From the IMG/VR virus record IMGVR_UViG_3300030380_002510, positions 1 through 56,283 of that record: a stretch of DNA of 56,283 nucleotides; one strand, written 5' to 3'. How positions within the stretch are numbered: the first letter of the stretch is position 1; every line of letters starts with the position of its first letter. Source of the stretch: a virus. Of the stretch, positions 36,950 through 56,283 are shown in pieces. Position numbers and translations under genes: made by a program. The notes below the pieces were generated by a model. It did no database searches, had not been told where the DNA came from, and saw nothing but the letters and a program-made list of their open reading frames with translations.

Positions 36950-37221
36950 ATGTTCAAAAGTTTCTACAGAAAAAAGAATTTGAAACTGTAGAAGATTTTG
37001 AATATCAAGCGGAATATCTCGCTTATGTTGTAGCAAAACACTACAATATTTCACTGTACGAGGTTTACAAAATGCCTTTACCAATATTCAAACAATCACT
37101 AATATGGGCTATGGCGATACAAGAAGAACAGGAAAAAGAAAATAAAAGAGCAGAACAAGAGGCAAAAGCAGGGGATAGAGAAGTGGTATCACTAGATTAT
37201 TCGTTTTTAGATTGGGAGTGA
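36946..37221 (+). CDS. Tail assembly chaperone candidate, downstream frame
   Basis: A GTG overlaps the previous stop (GTGA), so the protein can be made by itself (91 residues) or as a fusion by frameshift. The sequence is helical, with Y-rich (EYLAYVVAKHYNISLYEVYK) and acidic Gln/Glu-rich (EEQEKENKRAEQEAKAGD) parts, and ends SLDYSFLDWE. The helical LPIFKQSLIWAM segment resembles the kind of residue pattern seen in gpT-like extensions. It directly precedes the tape measure gene. Function is inferred from gene order. Confidence 0.55.
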   Translation: MNVQKFLQKKEFETVEDFEYQAEYLAYVVAKHYNISLYEVYKMPLPIFKQSLIWAMAIQEEQEKENKRAEQEAKAGDREVVSLDYSFLDWE

Positions 37222-37225
37222 AAGT

Positions 37226-38257
37226 ATGGCATTATTAGCAACACTATCCTCTATGTCATCACTTGTTAGTGGTATTGGTCCGGCTTTTCAAATGATAGGT
37301 GATGTAGCAGGTAAAATATTCAAAGGTATAGGAGATTTTTTCAATAAGTTTTTTGTTGAACCTGCTAAGGCAGTATTTGATTGGTTAAAAGGTGCTTTTG
37401 AAACTCTAGGAGAACTAGCCGGTACTGCATTTGGTATCGTAGGAGATATATGGAATGCGGTAGTGGTAGAACCGATAAAATTTTTATTTGATTTAATAGA
37501 AACAGGGTTTGGGGTATTAGGTAGTATAGCCGAAGTAGCATTTACCGCAGTAGGAGTATTATGGGAAGAAAAAGTATTAGCCCCTGTAAAAACTATATTA
37601 GATGTAATATCTACTATTGCGGGTTTCTTAAAAGATGTATTTGTAGGTACTTTACAAATACTGTATGAAAATGTAGTCTTAAAAATGCTTGACCCGTTTA
37701 AGATTGTATTCGGAGTTTTAGGTGATATAAAAGATACAGTGAGTAATGTTTTTGATGGATTTAAACTTGGAGATGTATTTACATTAAAGTTTTGGAAAAA
37801 ACTCTTTGGTGGTATACTTAACATAGGTAAATCTATTCTTGGTGGCCTTATTGATTTGATTAAAGCACCTTTCAATATGTTAATTGGTGTTATCAATAGT
37901 ATTCTAAGTAAAATAAAATTTAAAATTAAAATACCTAAATGGGTTCCAAAAGTAGGAGGTAAATCTTTTGGTATAGACTTAGGTAAGATACAAATTCCTA
38001 TGTTAGCAAAAGGTGGTATAGTGAACAAACCAACTCTTGCTATGATTGGTGAAGATGGACCGGAAGCCGTTGTACCTCTCAATAAGAAAAATAACCCTAG
38101 CGGTGTAGGTATGGGTAGTACATTCAACATTACTGTAAATGCCGGAGGTATTACAGATAGAACAGACAAGAGAGCATTGGCTCGTGAAATAGGTAATATG
38201 ATTCAACAAGAAGTCGCTCGCTCTATTGGTGGTAGTACTCATAGGGGTAGGTTCTAA
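37226..38257 (+). CDS. Tape measure protein, short and repeat-built
   Basis: The tape measure sets tail length and is the core of the tail. The C-terminal segment IPMLAKGGIVNKPTLAMIG with GEDGPEAVVPL is the signature of this family. Residues about 37-177 contain four tandem units of 33-37 residues (FVEPAKAVFDWLKGAFETLG, VVEPIKFLFDLIETGFGVLG and so on). At 343 residues it is short; with roughly 1.5 angstrom per residue the tail would be near 50 nm, an estimate from the family's known relation. The hydrophobic helices are amphipathic. The stop overlaps the next start. Confidence 0.85.
   Translation: MALLATLSSMSSLVSGIGPAFQMIGDVAGKIFKGIGDFFNKFFVEPAKAVFDWLKGAFETLGELAGTAFGIVGDIWNAVVVEPIKFLFDLIETGFGVLGSIAEVAFTAVGVLWEEKVLAPVKTILDVISTIAGFLKDVFVGTLQILYENVVLKMLDPFKIVFGVLGDIKDTVSNVFDGFKLGDVFTLKFWKKLFGGILNIGKSILGGLIDLIKAPFNMLIGVINSILSKIKFKIKIPKWVPKVGGKSFGIDLGKIQIPMLAKGGIVNKPTLAMIGEDGPEAVVPLNKKNNPSGVGMGSTFNITVNAGGITDRTDKRALAREIGNMIQQEVARSIGGSTHRGRF
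37334..37756 (+). repeat. Four tandem ~35-residue repeats in the tape measure protein
   Basis: Units at residues 37-73, 74-110, 111-144 and 145-177 share the pattern W...VVEP.K...D....F..LG..A..AF..VG; the first two are clearest, the third and fourth divergent. DNA identity is low, so the duplication is old. The spacing is one per about 110 bases. Confidence 0.7.
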
Positions 38258-39687
38258 TGGCTAATATTCCTGTTAGGTTTGTTAGAGCCGATGGTAGAAC
38301 TATTCAATTACCTGTGACAACACTTACTTTAGATGTTGATAGAGGTACTATGGCTATGCCTTTACCGTTTTTAGGTAGTAGCAGACTTGGTGTAGATTTG
38401 AATTTATCTAAAGCAGTGATTTTGTTAGAAGGTGTATTTACTGATGATGATTTATTTAACATTGGTACACCGACAAGTTCAACCGCATTAATTGATTTTT
38501 CAAGAGCAGAAGAAGTACCCGGAAGTGGTATAAATGAAAACACAAGATTTGACAGTGAACGAGAAATAGAGATTATTTTAGATGGTAGAACTGTAGATGA
38601 TTTAACAGGTGTAAATACAGGTATAGTATTGAAAAGCACTGATGGAACTATTAAAACAATATATGGTACTAAAAGTAGTGTATCGCATAGTCTATCTACA
38701 TTCTTGGGTGTACCTGTATATCAATTTTCTATAGGCACTACAGACGGTATTCAAGAAGGTAATTTAGCGGCGGGTGGTAGTGGATATTCTATAGGAAATA
38801 ATATTGCTACCTCCGGTGGTGCAGGTTCAAATTGTAAAGTAAATATCACAGGTGTAAGTGGTAGTGGTGCAGTAACAAGTTTTACTATTGCTCACCCCGG
38901 TAAAAACTTTGCAGTGGGAAACACAATTACCATTAGCGGAGGTGGTGGTAATGCAACTTTTACTGTATCACAAATAGGCACTGCTTTAACTGCTACTCAA
39001 ATGGCTAAAAATTTAGTTGCTCTAATTAATGATGGTGCATTGAGTACACCTATTAATGAATACTCCGCATCTTTAGTATCTTCTCCGAGTAGTGGAGAAA
39101 GCGATGTAGCAGTAAAAATTACTCAAACTGTAGCAGGGGAAGATGGTGATACTGATACACCGGGTTTTTATGGTAATGCTTCCGGTTGGCCGTGGGTGTT
39201 TAAACCGAGGTTTGATACATTTGATGGTGGGTCAAGTGCAGAAGGTGTGTTTAGTGGTATGAGTGCAGGTGATAAAGTAATGTCTTTGTATGCTACACTT
39301 AACAATTCAAACAATCCGGGTATAGGTGCGGCTCTAACTGCTATGACAGGCGGTGGTATGACTAAAACGGGAATAGAAAAAGCAAATAACAAATATGGTG
39401 ATTATATCATGGGTATACAAGTACCATTTAATTCTAGTATAAATGCTACAGACGGTAGTAAATACAAACCTGTAAATTTCTTTATGCCTACAGGAGCATT
39501 TGAAACACAGGAAAGTAAAAGTGTAGATAATGCAGTATCGGCTTCTACTAAAGTAGACGACGCTAGTGATGGTGATAGTAGGGCTTTCATTAAAGGATTT
39601 GTCACTAAAGCAACATTTGTTCAAATAGGAGGTGAACCTGTATACACATTCAATATACAGTTTACACCTGCGAATATAATTCTATGA
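38257..39687 (+). CDS. Tail protein with a Gly-rich beta module
   Basis: Start overlaps the tape-measure stop (TAATG). Residues 1-170 and 300-476 look beta-rich (IPVRFVRADGRTIQLPVTTL, KATFVQIGGEPVYTFNIQFT). Between them is an insertion with the GSGYSIGNNI and GKNFAVGNTI pattern, a Gly-rich fold frequent in marine phage fibre proteins. Its position between tape measure and the giant tip gene suggests a distal tail or hub component. No enzymatic motif is seen. Confidence 0.6.
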   Translation: MANIPVRFVRADGRTIQLPVTTLTLDVDRGTMAMPLPFLGSSRLGVDLNLSKAVILLEGVFTDDDLFNIGTPTSSTALIDFSRAEEVPGSGINENTRFDSEREIEIILDGRTVDDLTGVNTGIVLKSTDGTIKTIYGTKSSVSHSLSTFLGVPVYQFSIGTTDGIQEGNLAAGGSGYSIGNNIATSGGAGSNCKVNITGVSGSGAVTSFTIAHPGKNFAVGNTITISGGGGNATFTVSQIGTALTATQMAKNLVALINDGALSTPINEYSASLVSSPSSGESDVAVKITQTVAGEDGDTDTPGFYGNASGWPWVFKPRFDTFDGGSSAEGVFSGMSAGDKVMSLYATLNNSNNPGIGAALTAMTGGGMTKTGIEKANNKYGDYIMGIQVPFNSSINATDGSKYKPVNFFMPTGAFETQESKSVDNAVSASTKVDDASDGDSRAFIKGFVTKATFVQIGGEPVYTFNIQFTPANIIL

Positions 39688-39696
39688 GGTGATTAA

Positions 39697-42600
39697 GTGG
39701 TAGCAATAGGTAGGTCAAGCCACGCTTTCTTTTTTGATGGCGTAAGTGATTCTATCATAATCCCTCAAGGTAGATTTACTAAACTCGGTGATACTACATC
39801 AGTAGGAACTAATCAAAACATAAGAAATCCATCGGAAATACTTAGTAAAACAGGTAAAGGTAAAGATGAAACTACATTAATCAATAGTCGTTTTGATGAG
39901 GCTTTTGCTATTGAAACATGGGTTGTACCGGACTGCGGTGGAGTAATTGCTGAAAGAGAAGGACAATTTAAATTAGAAATAGGTACTGTAGACACACCCG
40001 GACCTGCTAAATTTACCGTACATTTAGATACTAAAAACGGTACTAAAGTGTATACATTGACTACGGCTACTGCGTTAAACACTAGATGGAAGGGTATCGT
40101 TTTCCCCGAACAAGAAGTTGGGAGTATACATGACTCTTACAATAGATATGATTTATCTAATTATAATGATGCTACTAATTTAAATTTTAATCATAGGCCA
40201 CTTTATCATGTAGTAGGAGCAATAACACAAAATAGAATTAATCTTTATGTAAACGGTCAATTACTCGTATCTAACTATAAGCCTAAAAATTCTAAGATTA
40301 CTGATTCTACTGCTCATGTATATGTTGGTGGTAAGGGTGGTGATTTTAGAGGGGCAGTAGAATCTATTCACTTTGCTAACAGATTTGATGAACAAATTAT
40401 AACTCCTAATGTACCAATGGATAACGGTACTTCTACTACGGCTTTATATCGTTTTGAAGAACCTATAGATGTAATCAATAAAGAATATACAATTACTGCT
40501 TTAGGTAGTGATTCCGCCTCTCCTTATTCTGCGGCAACAGATGGTAGCACTACTACACTTACCATAGCCGCTACTGATGCTCAAAATTTAATTGCTAGAC
40601 TTACGGGTAAAGCGTTTGATAGTTCTAATGCCACAATAGATTTTACTAAACAACCCTACAGTATGGGTAATTATAACACATTCAATGATACTACTGATAC
40701 AACAAAATATGTTCCTCATGTACCGTATAATCTAATAATAAATCCCGGTGCAATAAATAGAGATACGCAAAAACCTAATCAATCTCCACCGGAAAGATTG
40801 CGTATACTTTCTATAAACGGAACTACAGGAGTAATAACCGTTAATAGTATTCATCTTGACTATGTAGTAGGCGATGCTTCCGGTTTAAGAGGTATCATAC
40901 ATTCAAGAACAGTAGATGTTGATGATTATTTTATCATAGTACCTGCGGATATATTGATTGATGTTGCTACAGGAAAACCCTTCCAACCACCACACATCAG
41001 TTCACAAATAATAGATAAAACCGGACAAATGATATTAGATGAAACTCTCAATGAACAACACGGTTTAGTTTACTCATCTCAAATGGCTACTACTGCTTCA
41101 CACCCTAACAACCCATTCGCAGTAATTTGGCCTACAGGTATTAATGAAAAATATCAAATCGGTCATAGCGGTAGACACAAGTTTTCTCATATTGAGGGTC
41201 ATGAATATATGAGAAGATTCCCAAAACCTACATCTCTTAAAATAGACCAAAAGATTACAGGTTCAGCAGATATAGTTGAAATGGATTATAGCAATACTGC
41301 TAAGGGTGTAGACCGACTATTTGTAAAAAATCAACTTGCTGATTTTTATGAGGAAAATGCTCAAACACCTGTGTCTGCTATAGTAAATAGTAGCACTGCT
41401 TCTCTAGTTATTACAAACGGATTAGTAGCAAATAAAGAAGAAATTATAGCAATAGATGTAGAAGACCATAGACCGTTTATGTTAAAAGGTCCAATACCGG
41501 AAATATATGACAGAACTACATTGTCTAAAGATGAAAGATATTATCATCTAAAACCGGAAACTGAAAGTAGAGTAGCACTTTTACATGTACCTACTTTGAG
41601 AACTACATATAATCTCGCTCCTTATGTAGAAGTATATTACAACGCTATAGACTTAACCGGAGATTCTATGCAAGCACAATCTACAAATCCTACTCCTATG
41701 TTAATGGTTGAAAAAACAGTTCCTAAAGGTAGTCTTGCATTATCTTCAACTGTTAAAGTATTAGATGTAATTAAAGCAGATTTAGCAAATGCTAATAAAG
41801 ATAGTACAATATTTTCACCGGGTGGTTTTATTGAACTATCTAGTGCAGTAGTAAACAATAATGAATATTTTTCTAAGACTAATAGTTTAATTGGTGATAA
41901 TACAGGTGGGGCAGAATATGACCTTGAGTTAAATTTCAATACAACTCCTAGAAAAGAAGACTTTAGCGCAGGTTATACACCACCGGCTAATGCAAATGCT
42001 CAACCTGCTACTCCACCACAAGTAGTCGCTTCTTCGCATAACAAAAGCACCCACCCATCTGTATATCACAAATTATGTATTGAGCCTACTTCCGTAGATT
42101 CTATTTCTTCGTTAAGTGATTTAGGAAATAAACAGTTTAAGAAAACGGTTGAAACATCTAATAGCGGTGCGGGTGTATTTGATAAAGGAGGGGTGAATCA
42201 AGGTAGCCCTATATTTGAAATGTTTGATATTATAGACAACATTTACATCGGGTCAAAACAAACATCAGCAAGAATATACATTCAACCATCAAACAAAAGT
42301 AGAACAAATCAACTTCAAAAAATGCGTGATGGTGTTATAAAAGGTAAAACGCCTAACATCATGTCATTGTATTTCTTAATGAGTAGAACAAGAATAAGGT
42401 CTGTAAAACAAATAGATGACACTGAAAGTAATTCTGTAATTACACAAATTACTGCTACAGGAATAGCAGAAGAAGCGATAAATGAAAATGTATCTTTGGT
42501 AGGTAGCGGTTCTCCCGATTCTCATATTGTAAAAGAAATAGAACCTAACGCACCTGTAGTTTCTGTCACATTAGGCGGTCCGGGTCAAGGTGCTATCAAC

Positions 42601-45600
42601 ACTAAACCTACATACGACCCAAGCCCATTAATGCGTTTACCGGGTTCTACAAGAAGAAATTGTGCCGTAAAAGCGGTATCGGTATGTACCCTTGATACTG
42701 CTAAAACAATGTCTGTACAACCGTTGAATAATAACTCGGAGGACATAAAATCTTGGGGTACATACGCATTTGCTAAGAAAGGTAGGATATTTTTGTCCGA
42801 TGGGGCTAACGCTGAATATAGCGGTAAAGTTGGAGCAGGGTTTTTCTTTGATGATGCAAATGCTATTTCACAAAGAAAATATGTTTCAAGTAGCGGAGAT
42901 TTATTCTCATCATTTAACGATTGGTGTTTAGGTGTAGATTTAATTTCTAATCAAACTAAAGGTACACATAGTGTTAATGAAACTATCTTTAATGATTTAG
43001 ACTTTGGTTATGAAAACTTATGTGAAGATGGAAGTACAGTAAACGATAGATTATTTCAAACTGTAGAAGATGTAGTGCATGATTATCAATTAGGTACTCA
43101 ATATGCAAGTACTCGTGCGATGGTAGAGATACCTGTATTCCCACAACAATTCTTTGACTCACAAGCAGATGGTATATTCCCCGGACCGGATAACAGTATG
43201 AAGTTGCACTTAGATGCTACTTATACCGCACATACATGGAATCCTTCACCTGTAGGTAGGAGAGTAGATGATATACCACCTAATGATAGAGAAGCAAATT
43301 CAGCATATAGTGACAATGTTGAAGATAAAAAGTATTTTACAAGTACATATATTACTCAAATTATAGAAGATGGTAATTTCTTACAATTACATGTAGAAGA
43401 TGTAAATATATTTCCTAAAACTTTAGGACCATTAGATATGAATAATTTTAAGAATGTGGTTTCTAATCATAGATTATTTATTGAAGATGAATGGGTTTAC
43501 TATACTAATAACCCTATTACTGATGGTTATGTTAAAATCTACAACAAACCTTCTACTATAGGTAATGGTGGTTTTCATGGATTTAACACAAAAGAACTAT
43601 TTGAAAAACTAACAGTAGGTTGTAAGGTTTCAGTAGGTGTATCTAATCCTTCACTTAAGTCAATTAATTCCGATATTACTACTCAATCTTCGGATTATGA
43701 AAACCGTTCAGCCTATTACCACGACACCGGAAATGTACAAACTCAAGGTGGTAATCTTGACTACGGACTACGCCAATATGTAAGTGCAGTAGAGTTCAAA
43801 GCCGGTCCACTTTCTAATCCACACGCCCCTCGTACTAAAAATAAAAGAGCCAAAGCAACTATCATACAAGGTAAACAAATGACAGGACAGATTTATGCTT
43901 TAGAATTAGATGATGTAGAACATTTTATTGATACTAATTATACTTTAGATAATAGCGGTAATCCCATTGTAGGTACAGGTGATTTGTTAGTAATTGGTAA
44001 AGTTTTATCACCAACACCTGTAGAAGTATTGTACTTAGGTACTCAATTTAACAGTCAATTTTCTTTGAATACAACTAATAATAATACAATTTTAGTGCAG
44101 TTTGGTACAGGTGTCACAGTACCAAGTTTAGCAGGTGTAGAGTTTAGATTAGAAAAAGTTGGTAGAAGCCATCTTGCTCTATCTAATATAGCACAAGTCA
44201 CAACAAATGAATTAACCGTAAGTACATTTAGACCTACTGTTACTAATGAAATATGGTCTTTTGTAGGAACTACATCTGCTACTTCTACTACAAGATTAGA
44301 GATAGACTGTGCTAGTGCTACTCGTTCTCCTGTTGCTAATACTATAGGACTTAATTTAAGACCCGGTGATATGATTTACAGGGAAAGAGGAAACAGTATT
44401 GATTATGTAGGAACAGTAGCACTTGTACAATCACATCATAATAAATTGTTTCAAGATGATACTTGTGATACTACCAATGCTGATGCTACTATATCAATGG
44501 ATTCTACTGCATTATTACAAATAGGTATGGGGGTAAGCGGTGCGGGTATACCCGGAGGGGCTACTGTATTATCCATTACTACTCCTACTACTTTTGAATT
44601 ATCCGCTAATGCAACTGCAAATAATATAGATACTTCTCTTACATTTACTTATAATAACAATAAAACTACTGTACTTTTAGCCGCCAATAACGCAGTAGCA
44701 TTAGCCGCTACTGATAAAGTAAGAATAGGTATAAACTCAATAGTTGCTAATGATGGAGATGCAATACTCAACAAGTCTTGGTGCAATCCTTATGCCGCAG
44801 GTGGACTAAGAAACGGAGATACCATTTGGTGTAATATGACTATGAATAACGCCCATGCAGTAGAGGGATTATTTGCTAAAAGCCGTGGTGTGTTTAATGA
44901 AGCACAGGTATACAAAGCATTCAACGGTGGAGAAGGTCAATTAACAAATAGACCTCGTGATTCTATACCACTTGAAAACTTTTTGATTGGTGATAACTGT
45001 TTAGAAACCGCAATTAACTTTGCTCAACATGTAAACAAAACTGTAGAGTTAAATTATGAAGCGATGGGATTAACAGGTAATGGATTACACAATACACCTA
45101 TTGCTCCTACAGTTGCTTACATTGACCCATATCTTTCTTCCGATGGACACGCTCGTGTTTTGTTATACGATGTAGCACACGATAGAGAATTTATTTCATT
45201 CCATGATATACACATGCAAGTGCAAACTAGCCCTGCTACACCTGTAATTGGACACACAAGAAACCTTGCTACAAAAGATGGATATTATCAATTAGATAAT
45301 GTATTATCACAAATAAACGGTGGTGCGCCTCATTATCTTACAACTCAAATAGATGTAGCAAATGGCTTCCCATCGGAAAACAGATACCTAAGAAGCACCC
45401 AACAATCTAAATTTATTGAAAGTGCTTATGCACATAATATTGCTAATCAAACTTCTAATGATTTATACCCCGCCGCAGTTACGGATAATCCTGTAGCCGA
45501 TTTTATTATGGAAAATCCATTGAAAAATTTTAGTGGTGCTTCTATCACTGACATAGAAAATGAACACTACATGGGTAAAGGACACGGACATATAGTACAC

Positions 45601-48600
45601 AGTGGTCTTTATCATGAATCTGTAGGTACTAACTTTCACATAGCCGACAGTGTGTTACCTCGTGTAGAACCTGCTACTCAATCCTCGTTTTATGCTAATA
45701 AAAAACATAATCAATTAAGAGTAAACAAAGGAGATACAAGAATACTTCCTATGGTAAGAGTACTCAAAGCACATAGAAGGGCGCAAGGGTTTAGTACTTT
45801 TACATTTAAAGATAGTAGCACATTCTTTGATACACCCGATGGTACAAGAGTAATTTCAGCATTTTTGTGTTTGAAGGGTATTCGTAATGAAGAATTAAAT
45901 TTAATTAATCATAAAGAGTTTAGATTACATGTATTACCTCAATGGAAAAACATGGATTATATTCGCCGTCAAACAATTGACTTTGGTGAAGTTGGAGTTA
46001 AAGAGGGTGTTACAGATATTGAGGCGGCGGCAAGAGAAATTGTCCGTATGATAAATCAAGGCGGAGCAAAGAATGGTAGAACACACGCTCGTAGACCATC
46101 TCATCAATATCCCGGTGAAAGTGAAAGAATGGACTTAACTCGTATTGGTGTAAGAGAAGATATAAACAATCCTAACAAAGACCCTGCGAGCGCACATATA
46201 AACGCTGATTTTGCCGCTACAGGTTCAACACACGACCCTGCTCCGTTTTGGTCTGTAGAACACGCTACTACATCTCAAGATAGAGGTAGCCACATGGGTT
46301 ATATTAGAGCGCATATTGGTAGAGTTGTAGAGGATATTAACGGTGTTGAAGGTTTTACTGTAGTTATACATTCTACTGTACCCGGTGCTAGTGGTCGCAA
46401 TTTCTGTGCTTGGTTAGATAACAGTAAGGGTCAATCATCATATCAACCACAATTCTTAGTAGGTCATGGTGGCCGATTTAGAAACTTTTGGTGTCAGCAA
46501 GATGAAGTAATGGGTGAAAATATGCACCCTGCACCTATGCCTCTTAATAAACACGGTAGGCCGTTTGCACCTATTACTACGCTTAGAGAAATGGTGAAAT
46601 CGGAAAACAGTATTGATGATGTAAAAAGTAATCACGATTATATTTCAAGATTAAATGATGATGATAAAGCAAGAGTTTTATCTTCTCATGTTGGTAGTGG
46701 TGGTTTTAGTAATACAATATTTGATGAATCATTTGAAGCACAAAGTCAATCTTTGACTCTTGTAGAAGGACTTAGAGTAGGTACAAGACCTGTAGGTAGA
46801 ATTAACTTTGGTGGTTTAGTTGCTACAGGTATACCCGGTTTCTCACCTATAGTGGGGCAGTTTGGTTGTGGTGCAAAAGGCGATAGTTCATTTGACAGTC
46901 TTTACGGTAAAACTACTCATAGTTATGGTGGATATATAGATGGTTCTTTAATCAATGCAAGTAAGATAGGTGATTCTAATTTATACGGAGTTAAACTTAC
47001 AGACCATAGAGGTAAGTCGTATGGTGTAAGATATGTTTACAAGAGAATAGGAGATAACTTTACCAATGATAATACTTTAATTCCCAATTCTTTAGATAAT
47101 GAAATAGGTATTTTCTTTGATGATAGAGATGTTTCACAAGGTGGATTCTCATTAGGAAATCACATAATAGGTAGTGGAGATACTACAGGGCAAATTACAG
47201 ATACATCAATATTGTCTAAAGTGAATTACAAAGGCAACCGTTGGAGAGGTGTATATGCTCCCGATTCTTTGATTAACGCATCTGTAAAATGGGAGTCTAC
47301 AACAGATACTTTAACTGTTAAATTTTATACAGATAGTATTTTTGGTAATACTTTTTCCGGCACAGGTTTAGAAAGTGTTGAAGATATACTAGGGTATTTA
47401 GGATTTCCAAAAGAAAACGGAGTTATACAACTTAACGATACATTTACCGGCACTACTGCTAAAGGTAGTTTAGGTAATACATTATCATATACAACTCGTA
47501 CACAAGAAAACGCTCATGCTTCAAGAACACATGTGTTTTATGGGGTTAAAGGTAGTGCTTTTACTGCTTCTCATACAGTAGCGGGTACGGGTATAGTATC
47601 TACAAGTGCGGGTATAACAGATACGGCTAATGCACACCCTAACCCTACAGGTGAATACGCTTATGTGTTAATATCATCTCGTATGAATTGGACTACATTA
47701 CTTACTGATGAGGTAATGGCGGCGGCTACAGAAGCGGCAATAAATTTAGTTGATGTAAACAAAGAGGAAGGGGTATCATTTGATTGTACAGATATGCTTG
47801 CCGCCGATGGTCGTACATTGGGAGAATGGGGAGTAAGCCCCGATGCAATTAAATTAAGAGCGTTTAATCCTAATCAAAATATTATGCCTATTTCTACTAT
47901 GTTTAATGCTACACTTCACAAAGATAAAGGAATTGAAGCCGCACATGCTGAATACGGTTTATACAGTTCATTTAATCAAGGTGGTACTATAACCGGATTA
48001 TCAATTAAAACTGCCGGTAGTGGGTATTTTCCGTCTACAGGTGTTGCTGAAAATGTTGTAGCGAGCATACCTGCTATAAGTAGTGGATTTTTCGGTAGTA
48101 GTAGTTCTGCTAGTACAGGCGCAATAGATATTGTATCTGTGGGTGGCGGTGGTAATGTCACAAGTGTTGTAATAGTAAATGGTGGTCAAGGTTTCCGTGT
48201 AGGAGATGAAATTGATTTAACACAACAACCTTTTGGTAGTAATGGTAATGATGATTGTACTGTGGTTGTGACAAGCGTTAGTGGGTCTTTAGGTGGACAA
48301 ATTTTCAGCACTAATGCAGATAATAAACCACTTAGTGATGCTGATTTATTACTCAACAAGCAAGTATTCTGTGGTTATGTACCTAAGACTGTATTACAAA
48401 TAGAATCTAAAGGTCGTGGATTTCATGCTAATACTCCTACCCCTGTGCTTGTGGATTCTACAAACGCACCAATTGATACTTCTGTTTGGGCTAAAAATTT
48501 GAAGGGGGTAAATTATACAAGAAGTAGAGGCGACCATATTATACCTTGTATAAATGAATTAAGTTTTGGTTCTAATACAAATTTACAAAGAAAAAGTAGT

Positions 48601-51600
48601 ATAGCCACTATATCTACTACTACTAATAATGTAGTAGCCGGTACAGGATTTGTTAAAAATGCTATTTACTCTACAGGTGCTAAAGGTGCAGTGCTAAGTG
48701 CTAATGCCGCAACACAAGCCGGTAGTGGTTTTAATGCGGGAGGTGTGTTTAATGTATTTGGTGGTTCGGGTAAAGGAATGAAATTAAATCTCCCTAGTGG
48801 TGGTCCTAGTATACCGGCAGACATAGGTACTGCTTCTAATTTCACTGCATATAAATTAGACTTCGGAGAAGGGTATGTAGTAGGTGATGCTTTACACATA
48901 GAAAACGATAATACATTTAATGCAGGTAGTCCTACAGGTAGTGCTACTGCTATGAAATTTACCGTAGCAAGTGTAAGTTCCGGTGAAGGGGCAAAAATTA
49001 AAGTCACAGTTGTTAATGGTGAAGGTGGTATTACCGGCGCACAAGCCGTTGATAGAGGGAAAAACTTTGTAGATGAAGATTACATAAGAGTATTACCTGT
49101 TGAAGATGGTAAAGAAGTAGCGATGATACGAGTTAGTAATATAGCCAATGCTTCTATTTCTACAGATTTTGTATTTACACATGATAGAAGATTACATGCT
49201 ACATTAGTACCTCAATCTCTTGATGATAATACACAATTTACTCGCTTTAAATCTGTAGGAGAAAGAGGTACTTTTTACATTGGTAAGGATAAATCGGCAG
49301 TATTTAGAAGTGATGGTACAAATCTTTTACCGATAGTGCAAAATGAAGAATTTATAAATTTCTTTGAAAGTAATAATTTTAAAGATAGAACTGTCATGAT
49401 GACAAGAAACCCTAATCATCAAATCAACGGAAGAAGATTCTATGGTAGCGTAGACTCCGAGCCTATAGTTTTCTTTAGAGGTGCTAAAGATAGCGTAGAC
49501 CACACCGTACCACTTTACTTCGGTGGTGGTTTTAGTGGTGTGACAATAGACATTAACGATGGTACACAAAATGATTATTCTTCATTTTATACTCATCCTT
49601 ACTCAAATGGTCCTACGGGTACTACGGGTATACAACATGCAAATGAGATAAGCACATCGTTTGCTACAATAGACTGTAATGCTCTATTCGCTTTCTTCCC
49701 CGGTGCGGCGTTAGTAAATCAAAATAGAGGTTCTTTAAATCCACCTGCTTACAACAAAGATAACATACTTAGCCCCGATGTAATGGCCGGTGCTTTAGGA
49801 AATAACGGTAGTGTATTCAGTTGGATTAATAGTAAATATTCGGCAGGTGTAGTAAGACAAAAACCTACACCTTTAATTTTACAATTTGCTCATCCCACTG
49901 CTCGTTATGAAGATTATTCAAATCAAACTGATGTAAATAATCCTAGTGCATTGAGGCATCAAGATGTACCTAAAGTAGAAAACAAAACAATGTACATAAT
50001 CTATGGTCCGGGTCAAGCGATACCATTTTCCGAGAGTACACATAATATAGCCGGTGGTTCTTTCCCTACCAATACACAAGAACCACACCCCGGTACTGTT
50101 GTCACAGTAGGTAATACATGGAGTAAAGTTCCTTACAATATGAATTTACCAAATGCGCTTACTAACGATGTAAATGTATTTGCGCCCCCAACTAAAACAT
50201 TTCAAGTAAACAGACATGCGTATCATTACAAAGTACCTACAGGTCATGCTCTTAATTGGTCCCCACCTGCCGGTATACCTAATGTTGGTAGACTAGAACA
50301 AAGACCGGAGCATGGTTATCATTTTGGTGAACATTTTAACAATCCAAGAAGCGGTAAAATTACTGCTACAAACTCAAGTGAATATTTCAAAGCGCACCCA
50401 TACAAACATTCTGCTATGATGTATTTCGGTATTGCTATGTCTGCTGATATGACATGGCACATGGATGGAGGTTATCACCCCGGAGGTCATTGGTTAGACA
50501 ATCAAGTAGCGGTTAATTTCAAAAATCATACATCGGGTGCATTTGTAGCAAAATGGGGTAGTACACCCGTACACCCAACTGCCTTCCGAGTTTCTTCTAA
50601 ATTGTGTAAAGAAAATATAGATAGGGGTAGATTAACCGGAGCGTTAGGTAATCCTGTAGATGGTAGCACTACTAGGGCGGCTGATGATTATATTATTGTA
50701 GATGCTACAAGGTGTCAAAACGGAGAAGAGTTAGCGACTATCATCGGTCAAGCAATTAACGAAAATCCCGGTAAAGGCGCACTAAAGGCTCTTGGTGGCA
50801 CATTTATGCCGTCTATGGGTAATGCAAACCGTCAAGATAGGTACGGTTGGACTGAATTGACATATGAAAGTTATCAAGTTAATGGTGATATTGTCGGAGA
50901 TGGGTTTAGTAATTTACCAATTAATCACGGAGAATATTTTGGAGATGGTACTCATTCTCATCTTAGTGATTTAGTAGTTTCAGTCACGGCATCAATAAGT
51001 GGAAATGCTCAAAGTGTGTTAGAACAATTACCCGCTTGTGGTTGGATAAGAACAGACACAGGTGGTAGGGATTTCTTTGCTACAGGTGGTAATATGGGTC
51101 AAATACCCGCCTTTGCACCTTATCATTCTCGTGAAGTATATCTTCATTCAGCAGGTAATTATAGAGTAAGATTTTATCTTGCACCAAATAGAATAAGCGG
51201 TTTACCTTTCTTTGAAGATGGTTATTCTTTCTATAATAAATGTCAAGGCGCATCGGGTATATCATTCCCTCCTATTCAACACAGTTCAATAGGAGGTGCA
51301 ATTGTCACAGTAAACGGTGGTACAAAAGCAACACAAGAATGTACTAAGATATTTGTATGGAGTAAAGCCGGTGTACATCGTTTCAACAATGAAAATGAGG
51401 CAACTCGTGACCACATGACACAGGTACACTTTAGCGGTCTTGTAGATGCAATAGACAGAACAAGACCTGTAGGTGCAGTAGGTTGGGCGGGAGAAAGATA
51501 TTCTTATCTCAATTCATTAAAAGTAGAAACAGATGGTGGAGGGAATAAACTCTACGCCGCAGGTTTAGGTGCTTGGTATCAAAAGTTAGGTTTCTCACCA

Positions 51601-54600
51601 TACGGTTCATCTAACTCTTGTATGGGTGCATTAGGTCATTTCCCACACATACGCCCTATGCCTCATAGCCCCGAAGCAAGCCCAAGAATTAACGGTAGGG
51701 CTAATAGTGCGAGTACATCTATCCAAGTTCCTTATCAATGGAATATGGGATTAGGTACTAACGACAGTTGGCATACATCGTATATACATAACAATTCCGA
51801 AGGTAGTCCTTACGGTTCTCATATTAGTGCTTCTGCTAATGCTAATGATACAGATGTAGAAGAAGCACTTAACTCCTTTGAAGGTATCTACAGTCGTGCT
51901 TTCTTAGTAGTAAGTTATGAAAGTGAATTACCTTTAGTAGCCAAAGCCGATAGAGATAACATTAGTGCAACAGGTGATTGGTTATCTGTAGTATCAGCGA
52001 CTAAAGCGGGTACTGCCGCCGCTACTGCTCTTAGATACGCAGGTACAACAACATGGGATGAGCGAATAGCAGGTTATGATAGGTTTACTGCCCCTGCAAA
52101 TGCCGGACCACATGTTGAAGCATTGATAACACCTAACATGAATATTCCGACTAGAGATGGTAATTTCCCAACAGAAGGTGTATATGAAAAATTAAAATTA
52201 CTTGCACAAACTACAAATGACTCAATACAGGGTAATATTACAAATGGAAGTCCAAATATAACAAGTATAAGTTCTACAAGTGGAATAAAAGTAGGTATGT
52301 ACATTCATCATGCCTCATTCCCTGTAAATACTCAAGTGATTAGAATTACAAGTGGTACAGAAATTGAAGTAAGTAATAATGCTACTGCAACTCCGTCAAA
52401 TCCATCGGAGTTTCACTATATTACACTTGGAGATAACAGGACTTCAAATGCTACTCCTTGTTTAAATCCTACAGGAGATTTAATTACAGACCTTAATGTT
52501 AGCCCTGCCGCAGAAAATTTAGATTTACTTACAGGAACAATAAATCACACTAAAAATAAATTTTTATCTAATCACGGTGAGAGTACATTTAGCCCAATAT
52601 ATGCTCAAGACGATAGTTGGATTGGAGATACTAACGCATTCGCTATGGGTGCAAATTCACCTTCACAAAACTTTACAATTGAAAATATTGTATGGAAGCG
52701 TATGGATGGTGGCAATCTAAGTTTACCTGCCGTAAATGCAAGAGGACTTGGTGCGATACCGTTTATTACTCATTATGACCAAGATGGAGAAGTTTACACT
52801 AGGGGAGAAACCATATACGGTAATAATCGTTTTACTTTTGAAACCACAAATAGTGCTATGTTTCCTATTATACAAGCACAAGAACTTATGCACCCTCAAA
52901 TGGCTACTAAGAATCCCGATGAACTAAGAAATGTATTAGTCATACCGAATGAAGAAATGCAATTTAAGTCTGTAAGTGTAGAAGATGATACGGGTCAAAT
53001 ACACACTATAGAAGGCGGCTCTCCGTTTGGTACTATAATTAGAGGTTTTAGAAAAGTGTCTAATAGAGCAAGTGAAGGTTTAGCACCTGCGGTAGATAAT
53101 GGAGATAATTTAGAACCTAATTTAGAAATTCAATTACCCGATGCAAACGCTATACCCGGTAATATTTTAGTTAGGTCCGGCTTCGATAATGTACAAGCAT
53201 ATCAACATGAAACAATAGGTAGTGGTGGTATAATGAGGCCATCACATCAAGGTCATAATGGAGCAGGTGAATTATTTGATGAAAACTTTGCTAAGTTAAG
53301 CGGTTTAAGTAATAATATAAATGAAGGACCAAAATTAGGACCGACTTATGATGATTACGGGTGGGAGCATATAAGTCAAGACTTACACGGTGATATAAAA
53401 TTCCCCGATAGTACTAAATCGGGTTGGGTAAATACTACTAATAATAGCCCTCTAAATACTGCCTATAAACCACATGACAGAAGTTTATATTTCCATATAA
53501 CTAAATCTAATGTTGGACATACAGATAGACACCCTGTACGATATGTTCATTTTGCTAATGCCGGACAAACACCTATTGAAAATAATTTAACAATAACAAA
53601 TATTAATCTTGGTGTATTAACTATCAACACTTCATTAGATTATAACATTTGGGCGGGTATATCAAGTACTTTTGCTACACCACTAACGATAAATCATTTT
53701 GAGCAACATCATAATGCTTACAATACTCAAACAAAATTCTATGCTAAATTTATCAATCAAAGAACAGGAGAATCGGCTATAGGGGTAATACAATGGAGTA
53801 ATAAAACCCCTACTACAATATCACTTAGAGAAAATACCACTAAGTTATTCAAAGTGCTTTGGGGTTTAACTGATGAAGAACACTTTAAGTTAAAACAAAG
53901 TGGATTAGATAGTAATTTTTATAATCAACTTCTTACAGAAAATCAAGGTACACCAAGTGATACTATTACTATACGCCCTTCATATCCTATGCCCGCAGGT
54001 ACAACACGATTTTTTGCGGCAAGAAGAATGCGTGACCACGCAGAAGTAAGCGGTAATAGTCCCGATGCTAAACATCAAATATTGTCTATAGATAGTGGCG
54101 AAGATGAGGAAGATATTAGACTCCCTTATTTTCAACAATTTGGTAATCATAATATTTCTCCTATGGCTATACCAAGAATGGGTCATCACTTTGTAAATGC
54201 TACAATGGCAGTTATGCCGGGTCATTGGGCGCACCCTGCCTATCAAGGACTTTATCACAAACATAGAGCGTGTAGGTCGGCTACTTTAGCAGTTAAAGAA
54301 AAAACTTTAATTGAGGGTCTTACTTCTATTACATCTACTCAAAAAGACCAATTCGCAGTTTATGACCCATTGTTGGTTATCGGTAGTATGACCGCTACAC
54401 CAAGTGGACCAAGTGATATACACGGCGGAGCATTTACGCTTATGTTTGAAAGTAAAATTAAACATGACGGATATGGAATATTAGCATCGCATGGTGAAGC
54501 CGGTAATATCAATAAAGCAGGTGGACATACTATTGTACTTAGAGCGAATGCGGCATATACTTTCAACAATCATTTCCCCGACCCAAGTGTAGTAGGTGCT

Positions 54601-56283
54601 TATCAAATTATTATACAACCTAATGTATTTTCAAATACACTTATTGGTTATCACGCAAATGGACCTGCTAACAATTTACCCGATGGTTCTTCCGTAGGAT
54701 TAACAAGCCAACAAACTGCTTTGGTAGTAGGTATTAGAGAATTAGATACTACTACAGGTGGTTTGGCTTTGATACTTGCTAACGCTACTATGGCCGATGT
54801 AAGAGGTTGTGAAATTATGATTAATGAGGTTATGTTAGACCATGACCCCGACCACGGTAGCCAATTTACTAACATACCACCTTTGATGACATATAATTCA
54901 TTTGGGGTACAAGCAACAGAAGCACCCGCATTTACTCGTCAATCATTACCTTATCACCCTCAAATGTTTGTAGACTCTACACCGGGTATGACTACTAACA
55001 TACCGTGGTGGTCTATAGTACACCCATCTAAACCAACTACACTTACAGGTTCTACAAGCGCAAGAGGATTCCGATTCTTAAGCCATCATCGTTTAGATAA
55101 TTTTTACTTGTTCATAAGAGCGAATGCGGGTAGTATAGGCGCACAACTTACACTCGCAGGTTATCCAAGTTTACATCCTAATGTATATGATTCAGTAATA
55201 AGGAACATCAGTTTAAATCCTCATTGTACATTGGTAAGTAATACTACAACTGTACTCACAGTAGATGATGCAAGCGGTTTTCCTATAGAACCATTATACG
55301 GAGAAGTATTGTCTTACATAGATGTAAACGGTATTAGAAGAACTGCTACTTGGACTTCAAGAAGCGGTAATGATGCTACCAATATGAATAAACCTAAACT
55401 CATCACTCTTACAGGCGCACAAGCAGACTTTACAAATAACTTAGTTGCCGGTACAACAATTATTCGCTTATCAAAACAAAATGATACATTTAGAGATGCG
55501 GCTGAAATATTTACAGATTCGGAAAGAAGTATACTTACAAGAACTTTACCACAGACATTACAAGGAAGTAGAGATACAAACAGTTTACATGTACCCGATG
55601 CTTACATTTGTTTATGGTCGCCTAATTTGGGTAGACCTAATGCTAAATATTTAGAAGGCGGTATATCCCCTACCGATGGTTTCCATGCTCTAGGTACATC
55701 TACAAGTGTAATACCGTTAAACCACATGCCGCAACATTTTGAAACGGTGCATTATCACGATAGTACTTATTATGCAAGTCTTGGTCCTTTCACATTAAAC
55801 ATAGAAACTCCTTCTCCTATTGCCACTAATCCTAGTATCTTTGTTAGTGATGACCGTAAAGTATCAAGTAAAGGTGCTAACACTATTGTCACAAATTCTA
55901 CTACTACAAATGCAGGTGTAACAGTGACATATTCTCAAGGTACAAGAATAAGCGTAGACGGACACATCTACACGGTTGATTCGGATAATGGAACTACTAT
56001 AACAGTGTTTGAAAATACCGCTAATGAAATACCAACAGGAACTACTGTCTTTTTATTCGGTGATGGCTCACCAATTACAGGTTTATCTTTACAAACATTA
56101 AGAGATAGTGAAGGTGGATTATATGATAGCCAAGCCGGTAATCCGTTTAATTTTGCTAATAAACTACAAGCAAAACAAGCAGGGCAAATTGCTAGTGATT
56201 TATATTTTGGTGCATCTATGTTAAACAACTTTTGGCCTTGTGGTAGTAGAGGTGGACCGTTAGTAAGCAGACTTGACGGATAT
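39697..56283 (+). CDS. Giant tail-tip/fibre protein, at least 5,529 aa, cut by the right edge
   Basis: GTG 39697 has GGTGAT three bases before it. The frame stays open to the last base, 5,529 codons with no stop. Residues about 64-255 form a LamG/concanavalin-like domain (FDEAFAIETWVV, YHVVGAITQNRINLYVNGQL, VESIHFANRF). Gly-rich modules like GSGYFPSTG and GQGFRVGDEI occur at about 2,763-2,868 and 2,988-3,135. A GMGVSGAGIPGG-type module occurs at about 1,610 and again near 4,199. The rest is beta-rich with many Thr, Asn, Gly and His residues and no obvious enzymatic motif. The likely role is a tail tip or host-binding fibre, given the LamG fold and position after the tape measure. The C-terminus is outside the window. 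Confidence 0.85.
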   Translation, partial: MVAIGRSSHAFFFDGVSDSIIIPQGRFTKLGDTTSVGTNQNIRNPSEILSKTGKGKDETTLINSRFDEAFAIETWVVPDCGGVIAEREGQFKLEIGTVDTPGPAKFTVHLDTKNGTKVYTLTTATALNTRWKGIVFPEQEVGSIHDSYNRYDLSNYNDATNLNFNHRPLYHVVGAITQNRINLYVNGQLLVSNYKPKNSKITDSTAHVYVGGKGGDFRGAVESIHFANRFDEQIITPNVPMDNGTSTTALYRFEEPIDVINKEYTITALGSDSASPYSAATDGSTTTLTIAATDAQNLIARLTGKAFDSSNATIDFTKQPYSMGNYNTFNDTTDTTKYVPHVPYNLIINPGAINRDTQKPNQSPPERLRILSINGTTGVITVNSIHLDYVVGDASGLRGIIHSRTVDVDDYFIIVPADILIDVATGKPFQPPHISSQIIDKTGQMILDETLNEQHGLVYSSQMATTASHPNNPFAVIWPTGINEKYQIGHSGRHKFSHIEGHEYMRRFPKPTSLKIDQKITGSADIVEMDYSNTAKGVDRLFVKNQLADFYEENAQTPVSAIVNSSTASLVITNGLVANKEEIIAIDVEDHRPFMLKGPIPEIYDRTTLSKDERYYHLKPETESRVALLHVPTLRTTYNLAPYVEVYYNAIDLTGDSMQAQSTNPTPMLMVEKTVPKGSLALSSTVKVLDVIKADLANANKDSTIFSPGGFIELSSAVVNNNEYFSKTNSLIGDNTGGAEYDLELNFNTTPRKEDFSAGYTPPANANAQPATPPQVVASSHNKSTHPSVYHKLCIEPTSVDSISSLSDLGNKQFKKTVETSNSGAGVFDKGGVNQGSPIFEMFDIIDNIYIGSKQTSARIYIQPSNKSRTNQLQKMRDGVIKGKTPNIMSLYFLMSRTRIRSVKQIDDTESNSVITQITATGIAEEAINENVSLVGSGSPDSHIVKEIEPNAPVVSVTLGGPGQGAINTKPTYDPSPLMRLPGSTRRNCAVKAVSVCTLDTAKTMSVQPLNNNSEDIKSWGTYAFAKKGRIFLSDGANAEYSGKVGAGFFFDDANAISQRKYVSSSGDLFSSFNDWCLGVDLISNQTKGTHSVNETIFNDLDFGYENLCEDGSTVNDRLFQTVEDVVHDYQLGTQYASTRAMVEIPVFPQQFFDSQADGIFPGPDNSMKLHLDATYTAHTWNPSPVGRRVDDIPPNDREANSAYSDNVEDKKYFTSTYITQIIEDGNFLQLHVEDVNIFPKTLGPLDMNNFKNVVSNHRLFIEDEWVYYTNNPITDGYVKIYNKPSTIGNGGFHGFNTKELFEKLTVGCKVSVGVSNPSLKSINSDITTQSSDYENRSAYYHDTGNVQTQGGNLDYGLRQYVSAVEFKAGPLSNPHAPRTKNKRAKATIIQGKQMTGQIYALELDDVEHFIDTNYTLDNSGNPIVGTGDLLVIGKVLSPTPVEVLYLGTQFNSQFSLNTTNNNTILVQFGTGVTVPSLAGVEFRLEKVGRSHLALSNIAQVTTNELTVSTFRPTVTNEIWSFVGTTSATSTTRLEIDCASATRSPVANTIGLNLRPGDMIYRERGNSIDYVGTVALVQSHHNKLFQDDTCDTTNADATISMDSTALLQIGMGVSGAGIPGGATVLSITTPTTFELSANATANNIDTSLTFTYNNNKTTVLLAANNAVALAATDKVRIGINSIVANDGDAILNKSWCNPYAAGGLRNGDTIWCNMTMNNAHAVEGLFAKSRGVFNEAQVYKAFNGGEGQLTNRPRDSIPLENFLIGDNCLETAINFAQHVNKTVELNYEAMGLTGNGLHNTPIAPTVAYIDPYLSSDGHARVLLYDVAHDREFISFHDIHMQVQTSPATPVIGHTRNLATKDGYYQLDNVLSQINGGAPHYLTTQIDVANGFPSENRYLRSTQQSKFIESAYAHNIANQTSNDLYPAAVTDNPVADFIMENPLKNFSGASITDIENEHYMGKGHGHIVHSGLYHESVGTNFHIADSVLPRVEPATQSSFYANKKHNQLRVNKGDTRILPMVRVLKAHRRAQGFSTFTFKDSSTFFDTPDGTRVISAFLCLKGIRNEELNLINHKEFRLHVLPQWKNMDYIRRQTIDFGEVGVKEGVTDIEAAAREIVRMINQGGAKNGRTHARRPSHQYPGESERMDLTRIGVREDINNPNKDPASAHINADFAATGSTHDPAPFWSVEHATTSQDRGSHMGYIRAHIGRVVEDINGVEGFTVVIHSTVPGASGRNFCAWLDNSKGQSSYQPQFLVGHGGRFRNFWCQQDEVMGENMHPAPMPLNKHGRPFAPITTLREMVKSENSIDDVKSNHDYISRLNDDDKARVLSSHVGSGGFSNTIFDESFEAQSQSLTLVEGLRVGTRPVGRINFGGLVATGIPGFSPIVGQFGCGAKGDSSFDSLYGKTTHSYGGYIDGSLINASKIGDSNLYGVKLTDHRGKSYGVRYVYKRIGDNFTNDNTLIPNSLDNEIGIFFDDRDVSQGGFSLGNHIIGSGDTTGQITDTSILSKVNYKGNRWRGVYAPDSLINASVKWESTTDTLTVKFYTDSIFGNTFSGTGLESVEDILGYLGFPKENGVIQLNDTFTGTTAKGSLGNTLSYTTRTQENAHASRTHVFYGVKGSAFTASHTVAGTGIVSTSAGITDTANAHPNPTGEYAYVLISSRMNWTTLLTDEVMAAATEAAINLVDVNKEEGVSFDCTDMLAADGRTLGEWGVSPDAIKLRAFNPNQNIMPISTMFNATLHKDKGIEAAHAEYGLYSSFNQGGTITGLSIKTAGSGYFPSTGVAENVVASIPAISSGFFGSSSSASTGAIDIVSVGGGGNVTSVVIVNGGQGFRVGDEIDLTQQPFGSNGNDDCTVVVTSVSGSLGGQIFSTNADNKPLSDADLLLNKQVFCGYVPKTVLQIESKGRGFHANTPTPVLVDSTNAPIDTSVWAKNLKGVNYTRSRGDHIIPCINELSFGSNTNLQRKSSIATISTTTNNVVAGTGFVKNAIYSTGAKGAVLSANAATQAGSGFNAGGVFNVFGGSGKGMKLNLPSGGPSIPADIGTASNFTAYKLDFGEGYVVGDALHIENDNTFNAGSPTGSATAMKFTVASVSSGEGAKIKVTVVNGEGGITGAQAVDRGKNFVDEDYIRVLPVEDGKEVAMIRVSNIANASISTDFVFTHDRRLHATLVPQSLDDNTQFTRFKSVGERGTFYIGKDKSAVFRSDGTNLLPIVQNEEFINFFESNNFKDRTVMMTRNPNHQINGRRFYGSVDSEPIVFFRGAKDSVDHTVPLYFGGGFSGVTIDINDGTQNDYSSFYTHPYSNGPTGTTGIQHANEISTSFATIDCNALFAFFPGAALVNQNRGSLNPPAYNKDNILSPDVMAGALGNNGSVFSWINSKYSAGVVRQKPTPLILQFAHPTARYEDYSNQTDVNNPSALRHQDVPKVENKTMYIIYGPGQAIPFSESTHNIAGGSFPTNTQEPHPGTVVTVGNTWSKVPYNMNLPNALTNDVNVFAPPTKTFQVNRHAYHYKVPTGHALNWSPPAGIPNVGRLEQRPEHGYHFGEHFNNPRSGKITATNSSEYFKAHPYKHSAMMYFGIAMSADMTWHMDGGYHPGGHWLDNQVAVNFKNHTSGAFVAKWGSTPVHPTAFRVSSKLCKENIDRGRLTGALGNPVDGSTTRAADDYIIVDATRCQNGEELATIIGQAINENPGKGALKALGGTFMPSMGNANRQDRYGWTELTYESYQVNGDIVGDGFSNLPINHGEYFGDGTHSHLSDLVVSVTASISGNAQSVLEQLPACGWIRTDTGGRDFFATGGNMGQIPAFAPYHSREVYLHSAGNYRVRFYLAPNRISGLPFFEDGYSFYNKCQGASGISFPPIQHSSIGGAIVTVNGGTKATQECTKIFVWSKAGVHRFNNENEATRDHMTQVHFSGLVDAIDRTRPVGAVGWAGERYSYLNSLKVETDGGGNKLYAAGLGAWYQKLGFSPYGSSNSCMGALGHFPHIRPMPHSPEASPRINGRANSASTSIQVPYQWNMGLGTNDSWHTSYIHNNSEGSPYGSHISASANANDTDVEEALNSFEGIYSRAFLVVSYESELPLVAKADRDNISATGDWLSVVSATKAGTAAATALRYAGTTTWDERIAGYDRFTAPANAGPHVEALITPNMNIPTRDGNFPTEGVYEKLKLLAQTTNDSIQGNITNGSPNITSISSTSGIKVGMYIHHASFPVNTQVIRITSGTEIEVSNNATATPSNPSEFHYITLGDNRTSNATPCLNPTGDLITDLNVSPAAENLDLLTGTINHTKNKFLSNHGESTFSPIYAQDDSWIGDTNAFAMGANSPSQNFTIENIVWKRMDGGNLSLPAVNARGLGAIPFITHYDQDGEVYTRGETIYGNNRFTFETTNSAMFPIIQAQELMHPQMATKNPDELRNVLVIPNEEMQFKSVSVEDDTGQIHTIEGGSPFGTIIRGFRKVSNRASEGLAPAVDNGDNLEPNLEIQLPDANAIPGNILVRSGFDNVQAYQHETIGSGGIMRPSHQGHNGAGELFDENFAKLSGLSNNINEGPKLGPTYDDYGWEHISQDLHGDIKFPDSTKSGWVNTTNNSPLNTAYKPHDRSLYFHITKSNVGHTDRHPVRYVHFANAGQTPIENNLTITNINLGVLTINTSLDYNIWAGISSTFATPLTINHFEQHHNAYNTQTKFYAKFINQRTGESAIGVIQWSNKTPTTISLRENTTKLFKVLWGLTDEEHFKLKQSGLDSNFYNQLLTENQGTPSDTITIRPSYPMPAGTTRFFAARRMRDHAEVSGNSPDAKHQILSIDSGEDEEDIRLPYFQQFGNHNISPMAIPRMGHHFVNATMAVMPGHWAHPAYQGLYHKHRACRSATLAVKEKTLIEGLTSITSTQKDQFAVYDPLLVIGSMTATPSGPSDIHGGAFTLMFESKIKHDGYGILASHGEAGNINKAGGHTIVLRANAAYTFNNHFPDPSVVGAYQIIIQPNVFSNTLIGYHANGPANNLPDGSSVGLTSQQTALVVGIRELDTTTGGLALILANATMADVRGCEIMINEVMLDHDPDHGSQFTNIPPLMTYNSFGVQATEAPAFTRQSLPYHPQMFVDSTPGMTTNIPWWSIVHPSKPTTLTGSTSARGFRFLSHHRLDNFYLFIRANAGSIGAQLTLAGYPSLHPNVYDSVIRNISLNPHCTLVSNTTTVLTVDDASGFPIEPLYGEVLSYIDVNGIRRTATWTSRSGNDATNMNKPKLITLTGAQADFTNNLVAGTTIIRLSKQNDTFRDAAEIFTDSERSILTRTLPQTLQGSRDTNSLHVPDAYICLWSPNLGRPNAKYLEGGISPTDGFHALGTSTSVIPLNHMPQHFETVHYHDSTYYASLGPFTLNIETPSPIATNPSIFVSDDRKVSSKGANTIVTNSTTTNAGVTVTYSQGTRISVDGHIYTVDSDNGTTITVFENTANEIPTGTTVFLFGDGSPITGLSLQTLRDSEGGLYDSQAGNPFNFANKLQAKQAGQIASDLYFGASMLNNFWPCGSRGGPLVSRLDGY

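What the first reader, a model, noticed from the sequence alone, without database searches (positions are those of the whole stretch)
39697..56283. Single open frame of at least 5,529 codons with a LamG head
The gene fills the last 16.6 kb without a stop and still continues. A protein of more than 600 kDa is exceptional for a virus. The LamG domain at the N-terminus, plus repeated Gly-rich and GMGVSG-type modules, suggests a modular host-binding tip.
Basis: seen in the sequence. Interest (0 to 1): 0.75.

Follow-up and report, generated by a model that had tools for sequence, protein, structure and literature searches.

The report
Giant modular tail protein of magroviruses
The open frame is real: it is the largest gene of viruses that probably infect very common uncultured ocean archaea, and it encodes a protein of roughly 6,000 amino acids, probably part of the tail tip, in which small adhesion-like domains are plugged into and out of a fixed scaffold from virus to virus.

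Summary
39697-56283 (+) is one open frame of 5,529 codons (about 400 stops expected by chance). It starts at a GTG behind a good ribosome-binding site and runs off a linear IMG/VR fragment. It is not an artefact: relatives in independent contigs are collinear, and complete ones are 5,093-6,359 aa with a conserved C-terminus 674-1,009 aa past the window's end. The window's protein should be about 6,200-6,540 aa. Every relative contig that reaches far enough carries the gene.

The virus is an archaeal Caudoviricetes of magrovirus type. The gene follows a tail tube, frameshifted chaperone, tape measure and another tail protein. Structure comparison supports the N-terminal LamG.

New here: a constant scaffold with insertion sites. 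A 58-aa GMGVSG module (0-8 copies), a ~70-aa Gly-rich module and a LamG domain come and go at discrete places. One C-terminal site is empty, carries GMGVSG or carries LamG in different viruses; it lies beyond the window's end.

A tail-tip adhesion role is inferred, not shown. The N-terminal LamG is in the constant part, so it is not clearly the host-specific tip. Within its virus group the gene's size is normal.

The parts
39697..56283 (+). Giant ORF, 5,529 codons, GTG start, open at the end of the record; product probably about 6,200-6,540 aa when complete
39686..39693 (+). GAGGTGAT, probable ribosome-binding site overlapping the stop codon of the preceding gene
   Evidence: read from sequence
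39874..40464 (+). LamG / concanavalin A-like jelly roll, about aa 60-256, in the constant part of the protein
44473..44649 (+). GMGVSG module (58-59 aa), aa 1593-1651; replaced by a short linker in the 96%-identical virus G019
45814..47076 (+). Most conserved block, aa 2040-2460 (55-69% identity to the window across 31 sequences); no known family or solved relative
48589..49206 (+). Gly-rich insertion of 206 aa (aa 2965-3170) at a site where another virus (L259) has a Gly-rich module and L064 has nothing
52240..52407 (+). Divergent second GMGVSG-type module, aa 4182-4237 (also the only PHROG hit, phrog_17105)
38257..39687 (+). Preceding 476-aa tail protein; carries one Gly-rich module (aa 171-241, 38767-38979) of the type found in relatives' giant proteins
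37226..38257 (+). Short tape measure protein, 343 aa
   Evidence: PHROG tape-measure families, best E 6.6e-22
36572..37223 (+). Probable tail assembly chaperone pair made by -1 frameshifting at AAGGGGGGTTT; the end coordinate is approximate
   Evidence: the same arrangement in L077
34204..36108 (+). Probable tail tube protein, 634 aa (Phage_tube_2, weak); homologues in G002 and G005 carry a GMGVSG module
27108..28292 (+). Major capsid protein of archaeal Caudoviricetes type
12808..14295 (+). Large terminase

Best explanation
This is a genuine, conserved giant structural gene of magrovirus-type archaeal tailed viruses. It makes one polypeptide of roughly 6,000 aa that probably forms the distal adhesion part of the virion (tail tip or fibre). 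The protein is a long constant scaffold, with a LamG domain near its N-terminus, that carries interchangeable small domains at discrete insertion sites. Shown here: the intact frame, its conservation, its place in the tail gene cluster, the LamG fold, and gain, loss and exchange of modules at sites. Inferred: that the protein sits at the tail tip of the virion, that the modules bind host surface glycans or glycoproteins, that swapping them alters host range, and that the host is Poseidoniales.
For: Open frame and coding signals. Collinear complete relatives of 5,093-6,359 aa with a conserved C-terminus. The block lies in one frame without stops in 42 of 42 further contigs. Of capsid-bearing contigs 20 of 23 have it, and the other three end too early. 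Purifying selection: mismatches by codon position 84/50/228 against G019 (summed). Position behind tail tube, chaperone, tape measure and a 476-aa tail protein. LamG fold, with viral LamG proteins including one of HVTV-1 among the hits. Modules shared with neighbouring tail genes. Clean module insertions. One C-terminal site that is empty in 17, LamG in 10 and GMGVSG in 3 of 30 distinct sequences.
Against: No virion proteomics and no isolate. No tail-fibre or baseplate family matches the scaffold itself, and profile comparison with HVTV-1 and vir519 tail proteins gave nothing. The model of the most conserved block failed. Ligand binding by the modules is untested.
Confidence: 0.72

Rival explanations
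1. A tail polyprotein: one translation product that is cut by a protease into several baseplate or fibre proteins, with the variable sites acting as linkers between mature proteins.
For: Very long product, conserved blocks separated by variable gapped stretches, and a tail module with few other large genes downstream.
Against: No cleavage motif or internal protease domain was found. Many insertions are whole folded-domain-sized modules rather than linkers. Relatives never encode the pieces as separate genes, apart from frame breaks that look like sequence errors or gaps.
Confidence: 0.12
2. A secreted or cell-surface carbohydrate-active protein that helps host metabolism (an auxiliary metabolic gene), as a Laminin_G_3 label in the literature implies.
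For: Laminin_G_3 is counted among AMGs in four magrovirus groups (PMC10160649).
Against: No catalytic family was found in the protein. The gene lies inside the tail gene cluster, is present in every sufficiently long contig rather than sporadic, and shares modules with tail genes. It was not verified that the published Laminin_G_3 hits are this gene.
Confidence: 0.06
3. An assembly or frameshift artefact that fuses several genes.
For: Metagenomic contig, a linear fragment.
Against: Collinear open frames of similar or greater length in many independent contigs and even codon-position composition. Pieces of a 96%-identical contig (G019) cover the first ~2,640 codons, apart from a 22-nt deletion near codon 190 in that contig and the module swap.
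Confidence: 0.01

Closest known systems
UniProt A0A1B1IU10 (viral protein, unnamed in the tables at hand; BFVD model piece of 1,377 residues)
   Same: 44% identity over about 1,000 aligned columns with the N-terminal 1,000 aa: a true relative already in public databases
   Different: No name or described function in the tables at hand; only a piece is modelled
HVTV-1 LamG-like jelly-roll protein L7TI36 (Druskaviridae, 367 aa)
   Same: LamG fold in a tailed archaeal virus whose capsid protein is the closest named one
   Different: A small separate gene; no profile similarity of the giant scaffold to HVTV-1 tail proteins
Hafunaviridae tail-fibre adhesins (haloarchaeal tailed viruses, PMC8651126)
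   Same: Archaeal tailed-virus adhesion protein with hypervariable segments that track host range
   Different: A smaller Gly-rich adhesin gene with experimental host-range data; no sequence relation was tested here
Carbohydrate-binding modules decorating siphophage virions (936 lactococcal phages, PMC6669499, abstract)
   Same: Small binding domains grafted onto several tail proteins of one virion
   Different: There the carriers are ordinary-sized tail proteins; here most modules sit in one protein of roughly 6,000 aa
Laminin_G_3 'AMG' of magroviruses (PMC10160649)
   Same: Same Pfam family and same virus group
   Different: Listed as a metabolic gene; here it is the N-terminal part (and, in some relatives, a C-terminal insertion) of a giant tail-cluster protein. 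The identity of the two was not verified

Membership tests
Order Magrovirales (viruses of Poseidoniales) | HK97-type capsid protein related to Druskaviridae | tested here: met
   MCP hits only archaeal viruses, best HVTV-1/HCTV at 31-34% identity
Order Magrovirales (viruses of Poseidoniales) | Genome of 90-110 kb with replication and structural genes on opposite strands, PolB and other replisome genes | tested here: met
   Met in relative G002 (107.6 kb): PolB, chaperonin, HMGL-like and clamp-loader proteins. The window itself is a fragment without the replication part
Order Magrovirales (viruses of Poseidoniales) | Placement with named family exemplars (OR863078, ON649702) | not tested
   ON649702 (and PP497040 of Adrikavirales) are not in the collections; OR863078 was not tried
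Order Magrovirales (viruses of Poseidoniales) | Poseidoniales host | not testable with these tools
   No tRNA in the window or relatives; GTDB hits are three contigs of two bacterial MAGs, most likely misbinned
LamG / ConA-like lectin domain | Pfam Laminin_G_3 gathering score | tested here: not met
   19.1 bits against 27.6 in the window; 21.3 bits for the C-terminal domain of L065
LamG / ConA-like lectin domain | Jelly-roll fold | tested here: met
   Foldseek: laminin LG5 TM 0.51 and neurexin LNS 0.52 by target length; many viral LamG proteins
Tailed-virus tail-tip or fibre protein | Gene next to tape measure within the tail gene cluster | tested here: met
Tailed-virus tail-tip or fibre protein | Recognisable tail hub or fibre family in the scaffold | tested here: not met
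   No such hit for the scaffold; the one baseplate-wedge PHROG hit falls on a Gly-rich module of L261
Tailed-virus tail-tip or fibre protein | Presence in the virion and receptor binding | not testable with these tools
   Needs virion proteomics and an isolate

The most novel reading that the evidence does not exclude
In these archaeal viruses one polypeptide of roughly 6,000 aa takes the place of a multi-protein baseplate and fibre set. It acts as a fixed scaffold with about a dozen sites for interchangeable adhesion modules, so that host range can change by module swapping within a single gene.
Probability: 0.3. Interest if true: 0.75.

Novelty: new variant of a known kind. Interest (0 to 1): 0.57.

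Why it matters
Magroviruses are thought to infect Marine Group II archaea, among the most abundant microbes of the surface ocean, and are known only from metagenomes. How they attach is unknown. A gene that takes about 15-18% of the genome in relatives G004 and G002, is present in every sufficiently long contig and exchanges small domains at discrete sites is the best candidate for the adhesion device. It gives concrete domains to express and test, and sites to compare with host lineages. It also suggests that a gene counted as a carbohydrate AMG (Laminin_G_3) may in some genomes simply be the head of a tail protein.

Tried and rejected
Assembly artefact: rejected on collinear relatives. Split gene in G063: it contains a run of N at the break, so it is a scaffold gap. 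Split gene in G018 (3,743 aa): the protein goes out of frame inside a conserved stretch, as with a single-base error, not verified. Botulinum-neurotoxin binding-domain hits at the top of the PDB fold list: not taken as relationship; rmsd is mostly 17-20 Å with 9-12% identity, and only the jelly-roll type is shared. Homology to HVTV-1 or vir519 tail proteins: hhalign of 500-column blocks gave at most 3% probability. Fold of the most conserved block: AlphaFold failed (pLDDT 44.7, pTM 0.26), so the last fold search was not spent. Internal repeats of the scaffold by self-BLAST: none at E 1e-4. Shared sites of GMGVSG and Gly-rich modules: 3 of 7, p 0.007 under uniform placement but 0.07 under a stricter null, so weak on its own. 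Host link through tRNAs: none found. Cellular homologues: three contigs in two bacterial MAGs (Cytophagaceae, Maricaulis), most likely misbinned virus. GMGVSG module in INPHARED phages by tblastn: no match; the giant N-terminal half likewise.

Full report
What was checked. The frame 39697-56283 (+) is open for 5,529 codons and runs off the record, a 56,283-base linear virus record. About 400 stop codons would be expected from base composition; the other frames hold 259-730. The GTG start follows GAGGTGAT and aligns with the ATG of relatives. Codon-position GC is even along the gene. The visible product is 600 kDa.

Is it real, and how long is it? Scans of IMG/VR with the C-terminal and N-terminal parts found 23 and 36 loci, and a scan with the most conserved block found 274 encoding stretches. 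Genes read in full from other contigs are 5,093-6,359 aa. They align collinearly with the window, mostly at 30-70% identity per 150-aa block outside variable stretches, and share a conserved C-terminus. They continue 674-1,009 aa past the window's end (leaving out the truncated L069), so the window's product should be about 6,200-6,540 aa. In 42 further contigs the block always lies in one open frame of 4,067-6,332 aa without stops, some cut by contig ends. Starting from the capsid gene instead, 20 of 23 contigs carry the giant gene; in the three that do not, the contig ends before its expected place (inferred from capsid position and orientation). Against a 96%-identical contig (G019) mismatches fall 84/50/228 by codon position (summed), as expected for a protein under purifying selection. 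G019 itself has a 22-nt deletion near codon 190, real or an error of that contig.

Which virus? The capsid protein hits only archaeal viruses, best Druskaviridae such as HVTV-1. Relative G002 (107.6 kb) carries a family B DNA polymerase, a TCP-1/cpn60 chaperonin, an HMG-CoA-lyase-like protein and a clamp-loader-like AAA protein, with replication and structural genes largely on opposite strands. This matches the published description of Aoguangviridae and Magrovirales (PMC10768690; PMC12999244) and of MGII viruses (PMC5332604). Of the named genomes, ON649702 could not be fetched, so membership in a named family is not tested, and the Poseidoniales host is taken from the literature.

What does the protein look like? 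The gene follows a probable tail tube protein, a tail assembly chaperone pair with a -1 frameshift site, a 343-aa tape measure and a 476-aa tail protein. The N-terminal LamG is sub-threshold in Pfam, but the AlphaFold model (mean pLDDT 57.6) matches laminin and neurexin LamG domains and viral LamG proteins, among them one of HVTV-1. Most of the rest has no known family. Its most conserved block (aa 2040-2460) is 55-69% identical to the window across 31 sequences, with no solved relative and no usable model.

The module system. A 58-aa GMGVSG module occurs in 0-8 copies per giant protein and also in the tail-tube protein of two relatives. A Gly-rich module of about 70 aa occurs in the window's 476-aa tail protein and in other viruses' giant proteins. 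Relative to the module-free protein L064 each copy is a clean insertion: the flanks lie 0-18 residues apart. In the window one GMGVSG module sits at aa 1593-1651; the near-identical virus G019 has a short linker there. One C-terminal site, just before a conserved NPYxT stretch, is empty in 17, carries a LamG domain in 10 and a GMGVSG module in 3 of 30 distinct sequences. The 17 are printed as 'other' because the pattern began at an earlier WG; after their last WG only a short linker follows. A LamG of the same kind appears in an ORF of locus L094 of G005; that locus overlaps the giant-gene region, so it may be the same gene copy and not a second one. The C-terminal LamG shows no detectable profile similarity to the N-terminal one. 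Whether different module types share sites more than chance elsewhere is only suggestive; at the C-terminal site it is seen directly.

Most likely working. A single long polypeptide, probably oligomeric, forms the distal adhesion part of a tail. The constant part, including the N-terminal LamG, gives architecture and perhaps general glycan binding; the inserted domains tune or extend binding. Gene position, fold and module exchange are shown. Virion location, receptor binding and host-range effect are inferred. It works like phage tail proteins decorated with carbohydrate-binding domains (PMC6669499, abstract) or like archaeal-virus adhesins with hypervariable segments (PMC8651126), but it is not a demonstrated member of any tail-fibre family.

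Novelty. A relative of the N-terminal part is already in UniProt/BFVD, without a name in the tables at hand, and Laminin_G_3 has been counted as an auxiliary metabolic gene in four magrovirus groups (PMC10160649). No paper found in the library described the giant protein or its modules. The original magrovirus paper and the 2025 Poseidoniales virus paper are not held, so an earlier description cannot be excluded.

Noticed in passing
window 4698-5414 (+): 238-aa Ras/Roc-like small GTPase with G1 GAAMVGKT, G3 DLGGQER and G4 NKAD motifs, conserved in relatives G002 and G003. A small GTPase in an archaeal virus genome is unusual; no PDB match by sequence.
   Followed up: partly
window 20045-25600 (+): 1,851-aa ORF between portal and prohead protease with an ATP-dependent DNA ligase domain near its C-terminus. 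Its motif reads SKWYDGKR in all four viruses read, so the lysine is three rather than two residues before the Asp of canonical KxDGxR; it may be a divergent or inactive ligase.
   Followed up: partly
window 36572-37223 (+): Tail assembly chaperone with a probable programmed -1 frameshift at AAGGGGGGTTT; the same layout is seen in L077.
   Followed up: partly
window 36115-36627 (+): 170-aa ORF with a clear SAP domain (Pfam E 1.7e-12) in the middle of the tail gene cluster, overlapping the chaperone gene.
   Followed up: no
window 37226-38257 (+): Tape measure protein of only 343 aa; by the usual rule of about 0.15 nm per residue (from memory) the tail would be near 50 nm, short beside a fibre protein of roughly 6,000 aa.
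   Followed up: no
L095-L097: Magrovirus-like giant-gene fragments binned in bacterial MAGs (Cytophagaceae SAT149, Maricaulis IN14), probably misbinned viral contigs.
   Followed up: no
L262, L265: Two tandem tail-type ORFs next to the giant gene where the window has one (38257-39687), suggesting duplication of that tail protein.
   Followed up: no
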